A stretch of DNA of 50,757 nucleotides from an uncultured Pseudomonadota bacterium (GTDB lineage: Bacteria; Myxococcota_A; UBA796; SXON01). A program made the position numbers and the translations under genes. The notes below the pieces were generated by a model, which searched no databases, was not told the DNA's origin, and saw only the letters and a list, made by a program, of their open reading frames with translations. Shown in pieces: positions 38,924 to 45,577 of this stretch. The DNA lies in assembly GCA_903891165.1 (NCBI GenBank), contig CAITDR010000048.1:1-50757 (forward strand). Direction: 5' to 3'. How positions within the stretch are numbered: the first letter of the stretch is position 1; every line of letters starts with the position of its first letter.

Positions 38924-41757
38924 CCACTGTCCTGATGGTACCCCCGCAGCCAACGCTGGCGGCGGCTCTGGTCGAGGCGGGAATGTTGCCCTTGCCCCTC
39001 GCTGATCTGGAGCTTGCCCGCCAGAGTCTCTCGCCTCATGCCTTGAGTGCAGTGGTGTTTGGAAGCCCCACCGCCGAGCTGGCGGCGCCCCTTTCCGCCT
39101 GGCAAGAGGAGGGGCTTCTCTGCCCGATTCTTCTCCTCGGAAGCCGACCTCCGGGTTTTCCCTCCCTCCCCCGGCTCCGCTGGCTCTCCTCGGAAGCGGC
39201 AGTCCTCCGCAACCTCGCCTCCCTCGCCCGCCCCGCCCTTCCCGCGCAGATCTATTTGGAACGCGGAATCGTAGATCTTCAAAGCCGTCAATTTCAGTCG
39301 GGAGAGGAGCGCCAGACTCTGACCCCCCGCGAGCTGGCCCTGCTGGCCTTCCTGGCGATGCGCCCCAACGAGCTGGTGACCGAGGAGCTGCTGCTGCGCG
39401 AGGTCTGGGGAGCGGCCCCCGGGGTCGTCAGCCGCGCGGTCCATCACACACTCCACCGCCTCCGCGCCAAAGTGGAGCTGGAACCTTCAAATCCCCGCCA
39501 CCTCCGCACCGAGACCGGCCAGGGTTTCCGCTTTGTTCCGCTGCCCACCACACCCGAGCCTGCTCCGGCGGCGGCTCCAGAAATCAAACCGGTACTTCCT
39601 CCACTTCCTGCCGAACGGGACCCCTTTTTCGGTCGCATCGCCCCCCTGGCCGCGATCCAAGAGCACTTTTCTCAGGGAGGCCGAATCCTGACCCTCTTGG
39701 GGGTGGGGGGAATGGGAAAAACCCGGATGGCCCTACACTTTGCAGCAGGCCAGCCCCGCGCCGCATTTGTGGACCTCACCCTGGCCCGTACCGGGGAGGA
39801 CATCGATCTGGCCCTGGCGACGGCCTTGGGTCAGCAGCGCTCGGATGCAATCCTATTGGATCGGCTGGGGGAGCTGCTGCTTGTGGTAGACAATTGTGAG
39901 GATATTCTTGAATTTCTGGCGCCACGTGTGGACCGATGGCTGAACCAGGCGCCCGCACTCCGCCTCCTACTCACCTCGCGGCTCCCATTGGGAGTGCCGG
40001 GTGAAGAGATTTTCCTGGTTCCTCCCCTGGAAGAAGAGGCGGCACTGGGGATGTTCCGAGCAAGAGCCAAGGCCGCACCCGCCGACGACGATCGGCTGCG
40101 CGAGCTGGTGCGACGCCTGGACGGGATGCCGCTGGCCATCGAGCTGGCCGCTGCCCGCAGTGCGGTTCTCTCTCTTGCCGAGCTGGAACGGCATATGAAT
40201 GCCCGTTTTCGGCTCCTGAGCCGGCCCGGCGGAACCGGCCGCCATGCCACCCTTCGGGCGGTGATCGAGGCCTCCCGCGCCCACCTGACGCCGCCCGCTC
40301 AGCAGGCCATGGCCTGTCTTTCCATTTTTGAAGGAGGATTTTCGACTGAGGCAGCCGAGGCGGTGATCGCCGGAGAAAGCTGGGTGCCTGATCTTCTGCA
40401 GGAGCTGTACCTGCACGCGCTCTTGATCCGCTCCGGCGATCGCCTCGCCATGCTCCCCACGATCCAGGAGCTGGGACGCGAACAATTGGGCGCCGGAGCC
40501 ACAGAAGTGCGCGACCGCCACGCGGCCTGGTTTGCACACCACTATGCCCTCCCTCTTCCGCCGGATCGCCTCGAAGAAGCCTTGTTGGAGCGTGCCAATC
40601 TGCTGGCTGCCCTGCGATGGAGCCTGGATCGGGCGACCCCGGAGCGGGTGCCGCTCTTGGAAGCAGTCTGGGAGGTCCTCCGCCGCCAGGGTCCGGCCGC
40701 CCTCGCGGTGGAGCTGGCCCAACGTGCCCGAAAGGACGACCTTCTTCCGGCTGATCAGGCACGGTTGGCACTGATCGAAGCCTCGGCCCGTCGGGTGGGG
40801 GGCGACACCGCCGGGGCACTTCCGCTGGCAGAGCTGGCCGAGAAGCTGGCAGAAGGCCCGGTGCGCCTGCGGGCGGCCAACCTGGTAGGGATCCTCCACA
40901 CCATCCTGGGCCACACCGAACAGGCTACCGCCGCCCTGGAGCGTGCCTTTGCCGCCCATTCTCCCCAGGCCACCGCAGAACGCTGCGCCATCCTCAACAA
41001 CCTGGCCGGCCTCTGGGTGGATCGGGGCGACCTGGAAAAGGCCGCTTCCTTTTTTGCAGCGGCGGCGGCGGATGCCCGAAGTATCCAGGACCATCGCCGT
41101 CAGGTGCAGATTCTCGACAACCTTGCCCTGGTCCACACCTTTCGAGGAGAGCTGGAGGAGGCAGCCGCCTGCTGCCACGAGTCCGGACGCAGTCTTGCTC
41201 GCCTCGCCGATGAGGGTCTCCGTTTGAACCACCTGGTCACACTGGTCAGCCTGCACCAAGAGGGCGGGGACGAGCCCGCGATGCTGGCCGCCGCCACCGA
41301 GGGCCTTATGCTGGCCCAGAAGCTAGGCCACGTCCACCAGCAGGGCTGGTGTCGCCTGAGCCTTGCTCTGCTGCCTGGGACGCCGCTAGGCGAGGCCTAT
41401 GGGCACCTGGAGGCGGTCCTGAGCCTCTGCCGGGGGGAGCCTACCCTGGAGGGGAACGCCCGCGCCCAATTGGCGATCCTGGCGGCGCAGGCGGGAGATC
41501 AACGCGAGGCGGAGCAGCAGTGTGGGCAGGCACGCCTTCTGCTTTCCGCGAGTCCGCCCCACGGGCAGACGCCGGTGCTCCTGGCAGAGGTGGAGCTGGC
41601 ACTCTGCCGTGGAGATCACCAAGGTGCTGAGGCGATTTTTGACAGCCTTGCACCGGCCATCCGTCGCCTTGCGGAGCGCCACCCCACCACCGCCGCCGGG
41701 CGTTTGCTGGGGCGGCTCAGGGCTGCACCCCCCGGATCGGAGCTCAGTCCTCGCTGA
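38920..41757 (+). CDS. STAND regulator: winged-helix DNA-binding, NTPase and TPR domains
   Basis: The 945-residue protein has four parts. Residues 1-110 look like a degenerate receiver fold (TTVLMVPPQPTLAAALVE). Residues 115-205 form an OmpR/PhoB-type winged helix (LTPRELALLAFLAMRPNELV, VHHTLHRLRAKVELEP, TGQGFRFVPL). An NTPase follows with P-loop GVGGMGKTRMAL (near 265), Walker B LLLVVDNCEDIL and the GMPLAIELAAAR signature of AfsR/NB-ARC ATPases. About 400 residues of TPR repeats close it. Such STAND proteins are activated by ligand binding and oligomerisation to switch on transcription. The TTG start is chosen because the winged-helix frame begins here. It ends 14 bp inside a convergent gene. 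Confidence 0.88.
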   Translation: MTTVLMVPPQPTLAAALVEAGMLPLPLADLELARQSLSPHALSAVVFGSPTAELAAPLSAWQEEGLLCPILLLGSRPPGFPSLPRLRWLSSEAAVLRNLASLARPALPAQIYLERGIVDLQSRQFQSGEERQTLTPRELALLAFLAMRPNELVTEELLLREVWGAAPGVVSRAVHHTLHRLRAKVELEPSNPRHLRTETGQGFRFVPLPTTPEPAPAAAPEIKPVLPPLPAERDPFFGRIAPLAAIQEHFSQGGRILTLLGVGGMGKTRMALHFAAGQPRAAFVDLTLARTGEDIDLALATALGQQRSDAILLDRLGELLLVVDNCEDILEFLAPRVDRWLNQAPALRLLLTSRLPLGVPGEEIFLVPPLEEEAALGMFRARAKAAPADDDRLRELVRRLDGMPLAIELAAARSAVLSLAELERHMNARFRLLSRPGGTGRHATLRAVIEASRAHLTPPAQQAMACLSIFEGGFSTEAAEAVIAGESWVPDLLQELYLHALLIRSGDRLAMLPTIQELGREQLGAGATEVRDRHAAWFAHHYALPLPPDRLEEALLERANLLAALRWSLDRATPERVPLLEAVWEVLRRQGPAALAVELAQRARKDDLLPADQARLALIEASARRVGGDTAGALPLAELAEKLAEGPVRLRAANLVGILHTILGHTEQATAALERAFAAHSPQATAERCAILNNLAGLWVDRGDLEKAASFFAAAAADARSIQDHRRQVQILDNLALVHTFRGELEEAAACCHESGRSLARLADEGLRLNHLVTLVSLHQEGGDEPAMLAAATEGLMLAQKLGHVHQQGWCRLSLALLPGTPLGEAYGHLEAVLSLCRGEPTLEGNARAQLAILAAQAGDQREAEQQCGQARLLLSASPPHGQTPVLLAEVELALCRGDHQGAEAIFDSLAPAIRRLAERHPTTAAGRLLGRLRAAPPGSELSPR

Positions 41758-42532
41758 GGAGATCGACGATGGCGTCCACGATGCTGTCCTTGTCTTCCTC
41801 CAGCTTCCCCTTGGTCTCTTCGGCGTCTTCAACCGTCTTGTCGCCCCGAAGGAAGTCTGCCAGATCCTTGATGACCTGCATGGAGGCAGACACCGCCGAG
41901 ACGATGCCTTTGCCCGGGAAGCTATCCGGCAATAGATCGGCAACTTCGCCCACATCGGAGGGGTTGGGACCGCCATAGGCGGTGCTGCCACTGCTCTGGC
42001 CGGTGTGGCTGATGGCCCAATTCCGCCAGCCGGTGGGGGTCACGCCGTAGACCTCGGTCAAGAGCGCGCTGCCCAGGGCGGTGGTGGTGGTGGGCAGGCC
42101 GACGGGCATGGCCAGAACCGCCCAGTTGACGCCACCTTCGTGGTCGTTGAACAGGAGGCTCATCCGGTCGCCCGCGCTGGTGTTGCCCAGGGTGACTGCC
42201 AGGGTGGTCTCCTCGGTGAAGGTGGTGCCCGCGGTGTAGCCCAGGCTCACCGAAAAGGTCCAGATGCCGCCGATACCGCCGTAGCGCCCCTCCACCGTGG
42301 GCCAGGGGCGGTTGGGCCAGCCCAGGGAAGGAATGCAGCCGTAGTCGTGCCAGAAGTCAATCCCGGTCATCTCGTCCACAGGCTTGGTGAGCACCACGGC
42401 CACACCGCCGGAGGGCTGCGGCGCTACGATAAAATCGAAGCCATTGGAGATGCTGACCGTCGTGGTCGGCAGCAGGTCACCCGAGAAGTCCAGGGTGCGG
42501 GCGTAGGAGAGGCTGGCGAGGAGGAACAACAT
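41744..42532 (-). CDS. Secreted or surface protein of unknown family
   Basis: The 262-residue product has a signal peptide (MLFLLASLSYARTLDFSG). The mature part is rich in Gly, Thr, Ser and aromatic residues arranged as beta-strands (TTTVSISNGFDFIVAPQPSG, GGIWTFSVSLGYTAGTTFTE). A charged helical tail follows (VEDAEETKGKLEEDKDSIVD). I do not recognise a family. Its upstream region (42549-42638) holds a hairpin and a phased direct-repeat array, so it may be specifically regulated, possibly by the adjacent STAND protein. Confidence 0.72.
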   Translation of the reverse strand: MLFLLASLSYARTLDFSGDLLPTTTVSISNGFDFIVAPQPSGGVAVVLTKPVDEMTGIDFWHDYGCIPSLGWPNRPWPTVEGRYGGIGGIWTFSVSLGYTAGTTFTEETTLAVTLGNTSAGDRMSLLFNDHEGGVNWAVLAMPVGLPTTTTALGSALLTEVYGVTPTGWRNWAISHTGQSSGSTAYGGPNPSDVGEVADLLPDSFPGKGIVSAVSASMQVIKDLADFLRGDKTVEDAEETKGKLEEDKDSIVDAIVDLLSED

Positions 42533-42548
42533 GGGAGGCTCCGAGGGC

Positions 42549-42579
42549 GGGAGGGCGGAATGCTCTCTCCGACCCTCCC
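42549..42579 (-). promoter_or_regulatory. Hairpin in the leader of the secreted-protein gene
   Basis: GGGAGGG-CGGA pairs with TCCG-CCCTCCC (one bulge) across an 8-base loop, 17 bp upstream of the ATG at 42532. The GGGAGGG strand could mask or present a ribosome-binding surface. Confidence 0.45.
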
Positions 42580-42596
42580 AACATCACCGGGGAGCC

Positions 42597-42638
42597 TGTC
42601 GCAGGGGTGTCGCAGGCTGTCGCAGCGATTCTGCGACG
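42597..42638. repeat. Three direct repeats TGTCGCAG in helical phase plus an inverted copy
   Basis: TGTCGCAG occurs at 42597-42604, 42608-42615 and 42618-42625, spaced 11 and 10 bp, about one helical turn. A 7/8 inverted copy (CTGCGACG) is at 42631-42638. The array lies 65-106 bp upstream of the ATG at 42532, where an activator would bind. The stretch 42533-42936 holds no other gene I can support. Confidence 0.7.
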
Positions 42639-42712
42639 ACCTCGGCCCAGCTCCGCACCGAAGGGGCAGCCGACGCGCGTGGCTCCGCCCCGGTCGTGCG
42701 GGCGACTCGACA

Positions 42713-42732
42713 CTGAATGAGGATTCATTCAG
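42713..42732. repeat. Inverted repeat CTGAATGA-N4-TCATTCAG
   Basis: Perfect 8-bp arms around GGAT, AT-rich within a GC-rich region. It may be a dimeric regulator site just upstream of a TAGATAAT motif (about 42743-42750). Confidence 0.5.
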
Positions 42733-42775
42733 AAAAAGATGTGTAGATAATCGGAGGATCTTCAGGATCGTGCAA

Positions 42776-42807
42776 GGCGCGCGGGCCAGAGGCCCGGGCG
42801 CCTTTTT
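42776..42807 (+). terminator. Strong rightward rho-independent terminator
   Basis: GGCGC and GGGCC-type arms form a stem of about 12 bp across a short loop, ending at 42802 and followed by TTTTT. No rightward protein gene precedes it within 1 kb, so it may end a small RNA that starts near 42755. Confidence 0.65.
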
Positions 42808-42936
42808 GTCAACATGGTTTTGCCCGGGGGATTTAATGGGGGGCCAGGCGCACATCCATGGCGGCGGCGAGGTCCGCCTGTCCCAGATCCCAAGCTACAG
42901 CGACGACCCAGTTGAGATTTTTTTGTCAGGCTGGCC

Positions 42937-43839
42937 TCAGCTCCCGGTCAGAGCTTCGAGCCCGCGCAACCACCAGCCCGGTCGGCTCCTCCCTGCCCGC
43001 TCTACGGTCACCACCCGCAGCGAGGCGACTACCCGCTGCATCAACAGCGGCGCTCCACGTTCCAGCAAAGGCTGTCCTTCTACCCGCCCCGAGATGATCT
43101 CCCCATCGTCCAGCTTCAGCTCAAAATCGCCGTGCCCTAGGCGCCATCCATATAGCACCCCCTCTCGGGTCTCCTCCGACTCACTTACCCGTGTGTTTTC
43201 CACCCGATCGAGCGTCTCCTTCAGTTCTTCAGGGCTGCTCAGGCGGACGGAGGCACGGCTTGCATGAATCTTCAGCGTGGCACCAGCACGGTGCACGACT
43301 ACAAGGAAATTCTTCAACGCCACACTGACACGCGGATCTTGCAGCGCCAAGGCTTCGGCAAATTCGTCGTCCGACCTGGTCGCCGCCGTCATCAGCCCTA
43401 TGGCATCTCCCACGGCCACCTTAAGCGGGGAAGGGCTTATCCGTTGCTGATCAGCCACTTCCTGCAAGTGAAAACCGAAGGATCCAGCACCGGTGCCAGT
43501 GACCATCAGCCGCGGCCCCTGCGGCAGCGGTCCTCGTTGTCCTAGCTCCCCCAGCTTCGCGGCGGCCACCGTGGAAATATAGTCCTGAAAAGACTTAAGT
43601 CCCTCGCCAGCAAATCCGGCTTCGATTCCGACCTGCGCTCGCACCGGCGCGCCGTCGAACAGCAGTTCGACCTCCGCAAAACTCTCCAGCCGTTGTTCTG
43701 CTACCCGGACCTGTTGCTCCAGCTCATCACTCCGACTCTGAAGGTTACGCCTTTCTATGGGAGATCTGCTGCTCGCCCTCAGACGCTCTACGGTTCTCAG
43801 GTTGGCTTCCGCGTAGGCCAAATCGTCTTTGTAGGTCAC
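42937..43839 (-). CDS. Partner protein of the DUF6932-like gene, family unknown
   Basis: From GTG 43839 (GTGA overlap with the upstream stop) the product is 300 residues. An N-terminal coiled coil (residues 5-55: RSPIERRNLQSRSDELEQQV) leads to a central domain with LLFDGAPVRAQVGIEAGFAG, LKSFQDYISTVAAAKLGEL, LMVTGTGAGSFGFHLQEV. A C-terminal beta-rich domain follows (GVLYGWRLGHGDFELKLDDG, EIISGRVEGQPLLERGA). The longer open frame to 43962 only reads through the upstream gene. No catalytic motif was recognised. Translational coupling suggests the two proteins act together. Confidence 0.75.
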   Translation of the reverse strand: MTYKDDLAYAEANLRTVERLRASSRSPIERRNLQSRSDELEQQVRVAEQRLESFAEVELLFDGAPVRAQVGIEAGFAGEGLKSFQDYISTVAAAKLGELGQRGPLPQGPRLMVTGTGAGSFGFHLQEVADQQRISPSPLKVAVGDAIGLMTAATRSDDEFAEALALQDPRVSVALKNFLVVVHRAGATLKIHASRASVRLSSPEELKETLDRVENTRVSESEETREGVLYGWRLGHGDFELKLDDGEIISGRVEGQPLLERGAPLLMQRVVASLRVVTVERAGRSRPGWWLRGLEALTGS

Positions 43840-44426
43840 GGCACTTCTCCAGCCATGTGTGAGGGACGTACATCTGACCTGCGATGCCTTTCCTCCAACA
43901 AGGACCGGGCAGCAGCGTCCGCTTCCTCCGTGCCGAGGGACACCTGGAGGAGACCTTTCCATCTACGCTCTGTTCCGCGTTGGTGGCTGAAGAGTCCGAG
44001 GTAGTAGGTCAGTTGGTCTAATCGACTCTCCATCTCCCCTTGAAAATTTACAAAATAGGCATCAACTTGATACAGGTTTTTGGTGGTGCCAGGGTCAAAC
44101 AATTCAGAATTGCTATCGATAATTTTAAACTCACACTCCTCGTCTATATCAAAAATCGTCAAAACATCTATATCGCCGGGACTGTCCTTTTGTTCTACAA
44201 AGCTCCCAACCACCCACTGCACTCCCCCGGTTAAACCGGCATGCCGAAGTGCGGTCCGGTAGCGCAGAAATCCATCCAAAATCGTCTTCCGAGCTTCGGT
44301 TTTCCCAAACAAGTTTACCAACTCGGTGATGGAGACGGGAAAAGGAGAGTATCGTCCATCTAGATCAGAGGGGCCTTTGCCGATATAGGGAGGCAACAGC
44401 CCGTTTTGTTCAAAAGCAGGAACCAT
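43836..44426 (-). CDS. DUF6932-like nucleotidyltransferase-fold protein
   Basis: The 196-residue product starts MVPAFEQNGLLPPYIGKGP and contains a minimal nucleotidyltransferase core: GSFVEQKDSPGDIDVLTIFD, with GSF at 74-76 and the Asp pair at 85 and 87, and a later Asp in VDAYFVNF. This matches what I recall of the DUF6932 family. Relatives of this fold transfer NMP to proteins, RNA or drugs; the substrate here is unknown. Base composition is visibly lower in GC than the flanks, especially at 44030-44420, which suggests horizontal origin. It is coupled by GTGA to the partner gene. Confidence 0.7.
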   Translation of the reverse strand: MVPAFEQNGLLPPYIGKGPSDLDGRYSPFPVSITELVNLFGKTEARKTILDGFLRYRTALRHAGLTGGVQWVVGSFVEQKDSPGDIDVLTIFDIDEECEFKIIDSNSELFDPGTTKNLYQVDAYFVNFQGEMESRLDQLTYYLGLFSHQRGTERRWKGLLQVSLGTEEADAAARSLLEERHRRSDVRPSHMAGEVP

Positions 44427-44497: not shown

Positions 44498-45577
44498 TCA
44501 GGTTGATCGTGCTGGCGGGCACGCTCCCAACCCCTCCCCCACCACCTGCCCCCAGCTCCGCACCGACGGCGTCGCCCGCCGCCCCTGCCAAAGCCGGATG
44601 GCCTCAGGAAAGTCATCTGTAGTCTGCACTACACTTCCACCTTCTCCAGTCAGAAGGCGGCAATCTCCGATGTCGGTGGTCACCACGGGGGTGCCCTGCG
44701 CCCGGTAGGCGAGGATTTTTAAGGGGCAGAACCAGGGCGGGGCGTCGGCGGCGTAGGGGGCGAGGCCCACGTCCATCGCGGCGACGAGGTCGGCGCTCTC
44801 GCGCTCGCTCACCTGCCCGACGCTGTGCAGGCGGGGGTGAGGGGGGAGGCGGACGGGGCCTTCTCCCACACAAAGCCCTTGGGCTTCGGGGAAGATGTCC
44901 AAAAGCTCGATCAGCCGCTCCACCCCGTGCCAGGGTTTCATACTGCCGAGGAAGCCGAGCACGAGGTGACCCTCCAGGCCCAGGCGACGCCGGGCTTCTT
45001 CACGTTTGCCTACAAAGGGCTCCACTCCGTTGGGGAGGTGGAGAATTTCTCCTTTACAACCTATCTCTTCCTTCAACCACCTTGCCAGATAGGCGCTCAC
45101 CGCGACCAGCCTGGGCGCCGCTTGGAGCACGTCTTTTTCCCAGGCCTTGGCCCAGGTGGGAAGAGAAAGTGCTTCAAAACGGCTCCGCTCCTCCACCAAT
45201 GGGGCATTCACCTCCAAAATCCAGGGGATACCTTGTGCATGGAGCTTCCACCCCGCGTCGGAGTAGAGGCTGTGCCGCTCCCAGATCAGGCTGGGATTTT
45301 GGCGGTAGGCCAGCCGGGCTATCCGTCTTGCGGTCCACACTTCTCGATAGTCACGGTAGGACCGCAGCCAGGAAGGCCAGCCTGGAACTCCGGTTTCGAG
45401 GATGGGCAGGTTGAAGTCGGGCGCATGGTTGCCCCGGCTATCCTCCCGCCGTGCGACCACGCTGGTAGCCTGCAACGCACGGGCCACTCCGCGCAGGTGT
45501 GCGGAGGATCCCGACGGTCCCAACAGCGGAATTCCCGGCGCCGCACTCAGAAGTAGCGGGCGCGGGCCAGGATCCAT
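44498..45577 (-). CDS. Glycosyltransferase family 4 (GT-B)
   Basis: The 359-residue enzyme has the GT-B pattern: N-terminal GIPLLGPSGSSAHLRGVARA, linker AVSAYLARWLKEEIGCKGEI with HLPNGVEPF, and a donor domain LVLGFLGSMKPWHGVERLIE, LCVGEGPVRL, ADAPPWFCPLKILAYRAQGT followed by PVVTTDIGDCRLL. The Glu of the usual E-x7-E is replaced in the PPWFCPLKILAY context, so donor handling may differ. It would add a sugar from a nucleotide donor in the cytosol. Its ATG overlaps the upstream stop by one base, but its link to the sulfur genes is unclear. Confidence 0.88.
   Translation of the reverse strand: MDPGPRPLLLSAAPGIPLLGPSGSSAHLRGVARALQATSVVARREDSRGNHAPDFNLPILETGVPGWPSWLRSYRDYREVWTARRIARLAYRQNPSLIWERHSLYSDAGWKLHAQGIPWILEVNAPLVEERSRFEALSLPTWAKAWEKDVLQAAPRLVAVSAYLARWLKEEIGCKGEILHLPNGVEPFVGKREEARRRLGLEGHLVLGFLGSMKPWHGVERLIELLDIFPEAQGLCVGEGPVRLPPHPRLHSVGQVSERESADLVAAMDVGLAPYAADAPPWFCPLKILAYRAQGTPVVTTDIGDCRLLTGEGGSVVQTTDDFPEAIRLWQGRRATPSVRSWGQVVGEGLGACPPARST

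What the first reader, a model, noticed from the sequence alone, without database searches (positions are those of the whole stretch)
42937..44426. Lower-GC two-gene unit: DUF6932-like nucleotidyltransferase plus coiled-coil partner
Seen: a GSF...DID nucleotidyltransferase core, a GTGA overlap to a 300-residue partner with LFDGAPV...GIEAGF and TGTGAGSFGF motifs, and AT-richer DNA than either flank. Known: minimal nucleotidyltransferases often form toxin-antitoxin or defence pairs with coupled partners. Inference: this is a transferred module that modifies or senses a target through both proteins. It is my best candidate for an undescribed system.
Basis: partly seen in the sequence, partly recalled or inferred. 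Interest (0 to 1): 0.68.

Follow-up and report, generated by a model that had tools for sequence, protein, structure and literature searches.

The report
Nucleotidyltransferase and OB-fold partner gene pair
Two overlapping genes, an enzyme that would transfer nucleotides and a nucleic-acid-binding-like partner, travel together through phages, plasmids and many bacteria and often sit right after the phage repressor gene, so they are probably a barely studied anti-phage module.

Summary
On the minus strand, a 196-aa DUF6932 nucleotidyltransferase (44426-43836) overlaps by GTGA a 300-aa partner (43839-42937), in the lowest-GC 1.5 kb of the window. The pair is real and mobile: relatives occur in 51 viral contigs, plasmids and many phyla. 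The two genes are adjacent in 51/51 viral, 4/4 plasmid and 78/78 testable genome loci, their distances correlate (r=0.75), and the NTase GS/DxD residues are invariant in 136/136. In viral contigs a CI-type repressor lies within 1 kb upstream in 36/51, the position rexAB holds in lambda. The partner model is a helical hairpin, a GSFGF domain and a C-terminal OB-fold. It has no Pfam or PADLOC match, but profiles link it to the C-terminal part of DUF6575 proteins, the family of the toxin half of the validated defence system PD-T4-10. The NTase half is PADLOC's candidate PDC-M63A; the partner is missed by PDC-M63B models. Most likely it is a toxin-antitoxin-like anti-phage (superinfection-exclusion) module. 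Which half is the toxin, and what the NTase modifies, is inferred and unproven. The window copy is a patchy insertion beside a decayed copy of its neighbour's 3' end.

The parts
43836..44426 (-). DUF6932 minimal nucleotidyltransferase, 196 aa
   Evidence: Pfam PF22014 E=2.7e-30, PADLOC PDC-M63A E=3.7e-14, phrog_9194 E=2e-28; model pLDDT 91.6; best PDB folds MNT antitoxins
44166..44207 (-). NTase motif GS-X9-D-x-D (residues 74-87); third Asp D122 at 44061-44063
   Evidence: G74, S75, D85, D87 in 136/136 homologues, D122 in 132/136
42937..43839 (-). Partner, 300 aa, GTG start: helical hairpin, GSFGF domain, C-terminal OB-fold
   Evidence: phrog_18731 E=3e-31; no Pfam/NCBIfam/PADLOC family; model pLDDT 92.3
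43836..43839 (-). GTGA stop/start overlap (translational coupling)
   Evidence: sequence; a 4-nt ATGA/GTGA overlap occurs in 58 of 136 homologous pairs
43681..43833 (-). Partner N-terminal helical hairpin (residues 3-53)
   Evidence: model secondary structure
43471..43485 (-). Partner GSFGF motif (residues 119-123)
   Evidence: G119 and G122 136/136, S120 and F123 134/136
42952..43194 (-). Partner C-terminal OB-fold (residues 216-296)
   Evidence: PDB matches to CusF/SilF, Rim1 SSB, IF1, CspA, mostly with probability 0.9-1.0
42623..42877 (-). Decayed second copy of the 3' part of the neighbouring glycosyltransferase gene, on the far side of the pair
   Evidence: tblastn of the GT against 42401-43000: E=1e-7, ADLAAAMDVRLAPH...PSVRSWAEVVAESL, with stops; 36-nt direct repeat 42636-42671 / 44541-44576, 78%
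44498..45577 (-). Intact glycosyltransferase gene next to which the pair lies
   Evidence: present in 20/20 same-family genomes; the partner is in none of the other same-family genomes searched

Best explanation
A two-gene, toxin-antitoxin-like anti-phage module spread by temperate phages, plasmids and islands. Shown computationally: an intact NTase active site, near-obligate pairing, a repressor-adjacent position in many phages, and a partner with a predicted OB-fold. Inferred: the two proteins form a complex; in the resting cell the NTase keeps the partner harmless, probably by transferring nucleotide(s) to it or by binding it, in the manner of MntA and HepT. Infection upsets this, and the freed partner, through its OB-fold and GSFGF domain, blocks a nucleic-acid-dependent process and aborts the infection, to the benefit of the resident prophage or host.
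For: Pair kept in 51/51 viral, 4/4 plasmid and 78/78 testable genome loci; distance correlation r=0.75 over 90 pairs, best of 1000 permutations 0.07. NTase site invariant; nearest solved folds are MntA/MNT antitoxins, E about 1e-3, probability up to 0.98. CI/S24-type repressor within 1 kb upstream, same strand, in 36/51 viral loci, and 19 of 30 neighbouring ORFs from non-redundant loci with HTH_3; E. coli CE10 prophage order cI-like, DUF6932, partner. Partner residues 72-295 align with the C-terminal part of DUF6575 proteins, E=2.8e-13; these share their N-terminal domain with PD-T4-10B-like proteins, E=9e-17, and PD-T4-10B is a toxin neutralised by the gene before it (PMC9519451). Neighbours include type I RM genes, helicase/methyltransferase and ThiF/DUF6527/JAB cassettes.
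Against: No experiment. Partner and PD-T4-10B-like profiles compared directly give only E=0.056, so the toxin analogy runs through bridging proteins. The partner has no strongly conserved catalytic-type residues. A sister DUF6932 clade is paired with XRE-HTH proteins, which would fit the NTase as toxin. PDB TM-scores are low (0.2-0.5). Neighbour counts have no background control. A PDC-M63AB deletion showed no defence phenotype.
Confidence: 0.4

Rival explanations
1. The NTase is the toxin/effector (nucleotide addition to tRNA or another target, as AbiEii/MenT do) and the partner is its antitoxin, sensor or targeting subunit that binds nucleic acid through the OB-fold.
For: NTase active site invariant while the partner keeps no catalytic-type residues; a sister DUF6932 clade swaps the partner for a ~153-aa XRE-HTH protein, a typical antitoxin type; AbiE/MenT are NTase toxins acting on tRNA (PMC7725324).
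Against: No AbiE-type hit for the NTase in Pfam or PADLOC; nearest folds are antitoxins; the partner's relatives are in the toxin family of PD-T4-10.
Confidence: 0.27
2. A nucleotide-signal system: the NTase makes a small nucleotide or oligonucleotide that the OB-fold partner binds, releasing or holding an effect.
For: NTase plus a predicted nucleic-acid/nucleotide-binding OB-fold; two-gene economy.
Against: No transmembrane segment (largest 19-residue hydropathy mean 1.24) or conserved enzymatic residues in the partner; no CBASS-type family hit in PADLOC.
Confidence: 0.1
3. Not defence: a lysogeny or phage-regulation accessory (or selfish maintenance pair) expressed with the repressor.
For: Position behind CI-type repressors in 36/51 viral loci.
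Against: Only 2 of 80 genome loci have a repressor nearby; many copies are in chromosomal islands, RM loci or plasmids, where a phage regulator has no obvious role.
Confidence: 0.18

Closest known systems
PDC-M63 (PADLOC candidate, A = DUF6932, B ~309-326 aa)
   Same: First gene is the same family (E=3.7e-14); second gene of similar size; a DUF6575-type protein sharing the partner's core hits four PDC-M63B models.
   Different: The partner here hits no PDC-M63B model; among 39 homologues two match one model weakly (best 0.038) and one matches another at 2.2e-6.
PD-T4-10 (validated two-gene abortive-infection TA, E. coli)
   Same: Two-gene TA-like layout; its second, toxic gene belongs to the DUF6575 family, other members of which carry the partner's core.
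   Different: First gene unrelated to DUF6932; no DUF6575 N-terminal domain in our partner; direct profile match not significant.
HEPN-MNT (HepT/MntA, type VII TA)
   Same: Minimal Pol-beta NTase with GSX(n)DXD; nearest solved fold (motif PMC7641770).
   Different: Partner is not HEPN: no R-X4-6-H in the window protein and no conserved His in the family.
RexAB of lambda-type prophages
   Same: Position directly downstream of the CI-type repressor in many phages.
   Different: No membrane protein, different folds.

Membership tests
PDC-M63 (PADLOC) | A gene: DUF6932/PDC-M63A | tested here: met
   E=3.7e-14
PDC-M63 (PADLOC) | B gene matches PDC-M63B | tested here: not met
   no hit at E<=1 for the window partner; only remote kinship through L185 and L157
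PDC-M63 (PADLOC) | the two genes adjacent | tested here: met
HEPN-MNT type VII TA | minimal NTase with GSX(n)DXD | tested here: met
   GSX9DXD; fold hits
HEPN-MNT type VII TA | HEPN partner with R-X4-6-H | tested here: not met
   none in P0002, no conserved His in 136 homologues; OB-fold model
HEPN-MNT type VII TA | NTase adenylylates partner | not testable with these tools
   needs biochemistry
PD-T4-10 | B protein with DUF6575 N-terminal domain | tested here: not met
   no DUF6575 hit; only residues 72-295 align, with the C-terminal part of DUF6575 proteins
PD-T4-10 | A gene of PD-T4-10_A family | tested here: not met
   NTase hits only PDC-M63A
RexAB | adjacent to prophage repressor | tested here: met
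   for phage relatives 36/51, not for the window copy
RexAB | membrane protein RexB | tested here: not met
   no hydrophobic segment in the partner; NTase fold for the other gene
AbiE / CBASS | AbiEii or CD-NTase family match | tested here: not met
   Pfam and PADLOC list only DUF6932/PDC-M63A and a sub-threshold DNA_pol_B_palm match

The most novel reading that the evidence does not exclude
An uncharacterised NTase-controlled abortive-infection system, distinct from HEPN-MNT and AbiE, in which a DUF6932 enzyme nucleotidylates or is targeted by a GSFGF/OB-fold partner. The same partner core would be reused in DUF6575 (PD-T4-10-type) toxins, defining a larger toxin superfamily with interchangeable first genes.
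Probability: 0.35. Interest if true: 0.75.

Novelty: new variant of a known kind. Interest (0 to 1): 0.55.

Why it matters
It turns a DUF pair and an unvalidated PADLOC candidate into a concrete, testable module: a conserved enzyme site, a near-obligate partner with a predicted fold, a rex-like position in temperate phages, and a distant link to a validated abortive-infection toxin. Current PADLOC models miss the partner here, so this branch is probably undercounted, although one scan alone gave 290 genome matches across many phyla.

Tried and rejected
HEPN, AbiE, CBASS and Rex membership (see membership test). CheW and other weak Pfam hits of the partner: one member each, CheW below cut-off, inconsistent. 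Whole-protein PDB similarity of the partner to release factor RF1: TM 0.16, rejected. BAG-domain sequence hits: E 0.02 over ~40 residues, rejected. Single-protein scans of viral and genome contigs and phage-record tblastn found nothing; the alignment-based scans did. L162's partner as a homologue: hhalign probability 1%, left open. The sigma-70 promoter scan found nothing.

Full report
OBSERVATION. The NTase is DUF6932 (PF22014, E=2.7e-30). The partner has no Pfam or NCBIfam family above cut-off, only phrog_18731. It is the only copy in its 7.05 Mb draft genome. GC of the pair (56.8%) is the lowest of 493 equal windows; the NTase gene (50.4%, GC3 0.52) is more extreme than the partner (61.0%, GC3 0.66).

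TRANSFER. No other genome searched from the same family has the partner, while 20 of 20 have the neighbouring glycosyltransferase. In two relatives (L170, L171) the GT-cystathionine gene block is kept and the partner has no match in either genome. On the far side of the pair, 42623-42877 holds a decayed piece of the GT C-terminal region (tblastn E=1e-7 on 600 bases, with stops), and a 36-nt imperfect direct repeat flanks the pair. The simplest reading is an old insertion at the GT 3' end that duplicated part of it (inference). No integrase was seen beside it; the own genome's three integrase matches lie on other contigs, and the window's two tRNAs are at 19 kb.

THE PAIR IS A UNIT. An alignment-based scan found the partner in 51 viral contigs, each with the NTase directly upstream. 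Four plasmid copies show the same. A scan of one genome per species with the NTase gave 290 matches, 80 kept, in Alpha-, Beta- and Gammaproteobacteria, Myxococcota (Sorangium), Planctomycetota, Acidobacteriota, Chloroflexota, Lentisphaeria and others, including one archaeal MAG; 78 have the partner next, and the other two end at a contig edge. A further Myxococcota copy, L200, is adjacent too. Exceptions among partner hits: L006 (contig edge), L007 (truncated, beside a DarG-like gene), L203 (short fragment). Pairwise identities of the two proteins correlate at r=0.75 over 90 non-redundant pairs; the best of 1000 permutations was 0.07. A 4-nt ATGA/GTGA overlap is kept in 58 of 136.

SETTING. 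In 36 of 51 viral loci a CI/S24-type repressor lies within 1 kb upstream on the same strand, against one further upstream and four downstream or opposite. Of 30 neighbouring ORFs from 30 non-redundant loci, 19 carry HTH_3 and 13 Peptidase_S24 (the ORFs were chosen by hand). In E. coli CE10 the order in a lambdoid prophage is LexA-family repressor, DUF6932, partner, where lambda has rexAB (lambda gene order also in PMC12894663). Other phage copies follow lysis genes or an integrase. Non-phage copies sit, for example, between HsdS- and HsdR-like ORFs (L003, my reading of the translations), near helicase/methyltransferase genes, or near ThiF/DUF6527/multiubiquitin genes. A Pfam tally of 144 flanking ORFs found ThiF, DUF6527 and JAB three times each and Methylase_S twice. 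This is suggestive only, since no background was run. Only 2 of 80 genome loci have the repressor neighbour.

ENZYME. G74, S75, D85 and D87 are in 136/136 homologues and D122 in 132/136. The model (pLDDT 91.6) is nearest to MntA/MNT antitoxins (E about 1e-3, probability up to 0.98, low TM). In MntA the GSX10DXD motif adenylylates the toxin HepT (PMC7641770); here the spacing is X9, and X14 in most relatives.

PARTNER. The model (pLDDT 92.3) has an N-terminal helical hairpin, an alpha/beta GSFGF domain and a C-terminal OB-fold (SSB, IF1, CspA, CusF-like, mostly probability 0.9-1.0). It has no membrane segment, no HEPN motif and no strongly conserved catalytic-type residue. In the viral structure library its best match is a DUF6575 protein (E=1.4e-14). 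The profile of residues 72-295 aligns with the C-terminal part of DUF6575 proteins (E=2.8e-13). Those share their N-terminal domain with PD-T4-10B-like proteins (E=9e-17). The direct comparison with the PD-T4-10B type is not significant (E=0.056). L157's partner, beside a divergent DUF6932, is a full-length relative (E=3.4e-7).

MECHANISM. PD-T4-10 is a validated abortive-infection toxin-antitoxin pair in which the second gene is toxic and the first neutralises it (PMC9519451). With an MNT-like first gene and a relative of that toxin family as second gene, the economical model is that the NTase restrains the partner, by modification or binding, until infection. The reverse assignment is nearly as likely: the partner lacks catalytic residues, and a sister DUF6932 clade in Myxococcota is paired with XRE-HTH proteins instead (L149, L152, L154, L158). 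Both are inference.

KNOWN OR NEW. PADLOC lists DUF6932 as PDC-M63A, a computed candidate. The one published test found by search (deletion of a PDC-M63AB pair in E. coli NILS69) saw no effect on the phages used (PMC12409345); whether that pair had this partner type could not be established. PDC-M63B models do not match this partner. No paper in the library mentions DUF6932. I rate it a new variant of a known kind: a distinct, widespread, uncharacterised branch of a candidate defence family.

Noticed in passing
L149, L152, L154, L158 (DUF6932 with neighbour, e.g. L152:1495-2501): A divergent DUF6932 clade in Myxococcota is followed by a ~153-aa XRE-HTH protein (MIRNExEYQEA...); L147 has an XRE-metallopeptidase-like neighbour instead. 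Looks like a separate toxin-antitoxin-type pairing.
   Followed up: partly
L004:380-2858 and L200:692-3257: A variant with a longer partner (~440-460 aa) with a different C-terminus, followed by a conserved third ORF (MS[MV]R[AP]IDEPIP...).
   Followed up: no
L183:583-2300, L186:4546-6269, L187:4540-6245: PD-T4-10-like pairs (small first gene plus DUF6575 protein) in a genome of the window's phylum and in enterobacterial plasmids; a second DUF6575 type (L184, L185, L188, L190) carries the GSF/OB C-terminus instead.
   Followed up: partly
L007:1249-3232: Truncated partner without an NTase, on the same strand just after a DarG-like macrodomain gene.
   Followed up: no
window 42623-42877: Decayed copy of the 3' part of the glycosyltransferase gene between the partner and the 262-aa ORF.
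   Followed up: yes
window 41744-42532: 262-aa ORF with no match in the other same-family genomes searched.
   Followed up: no
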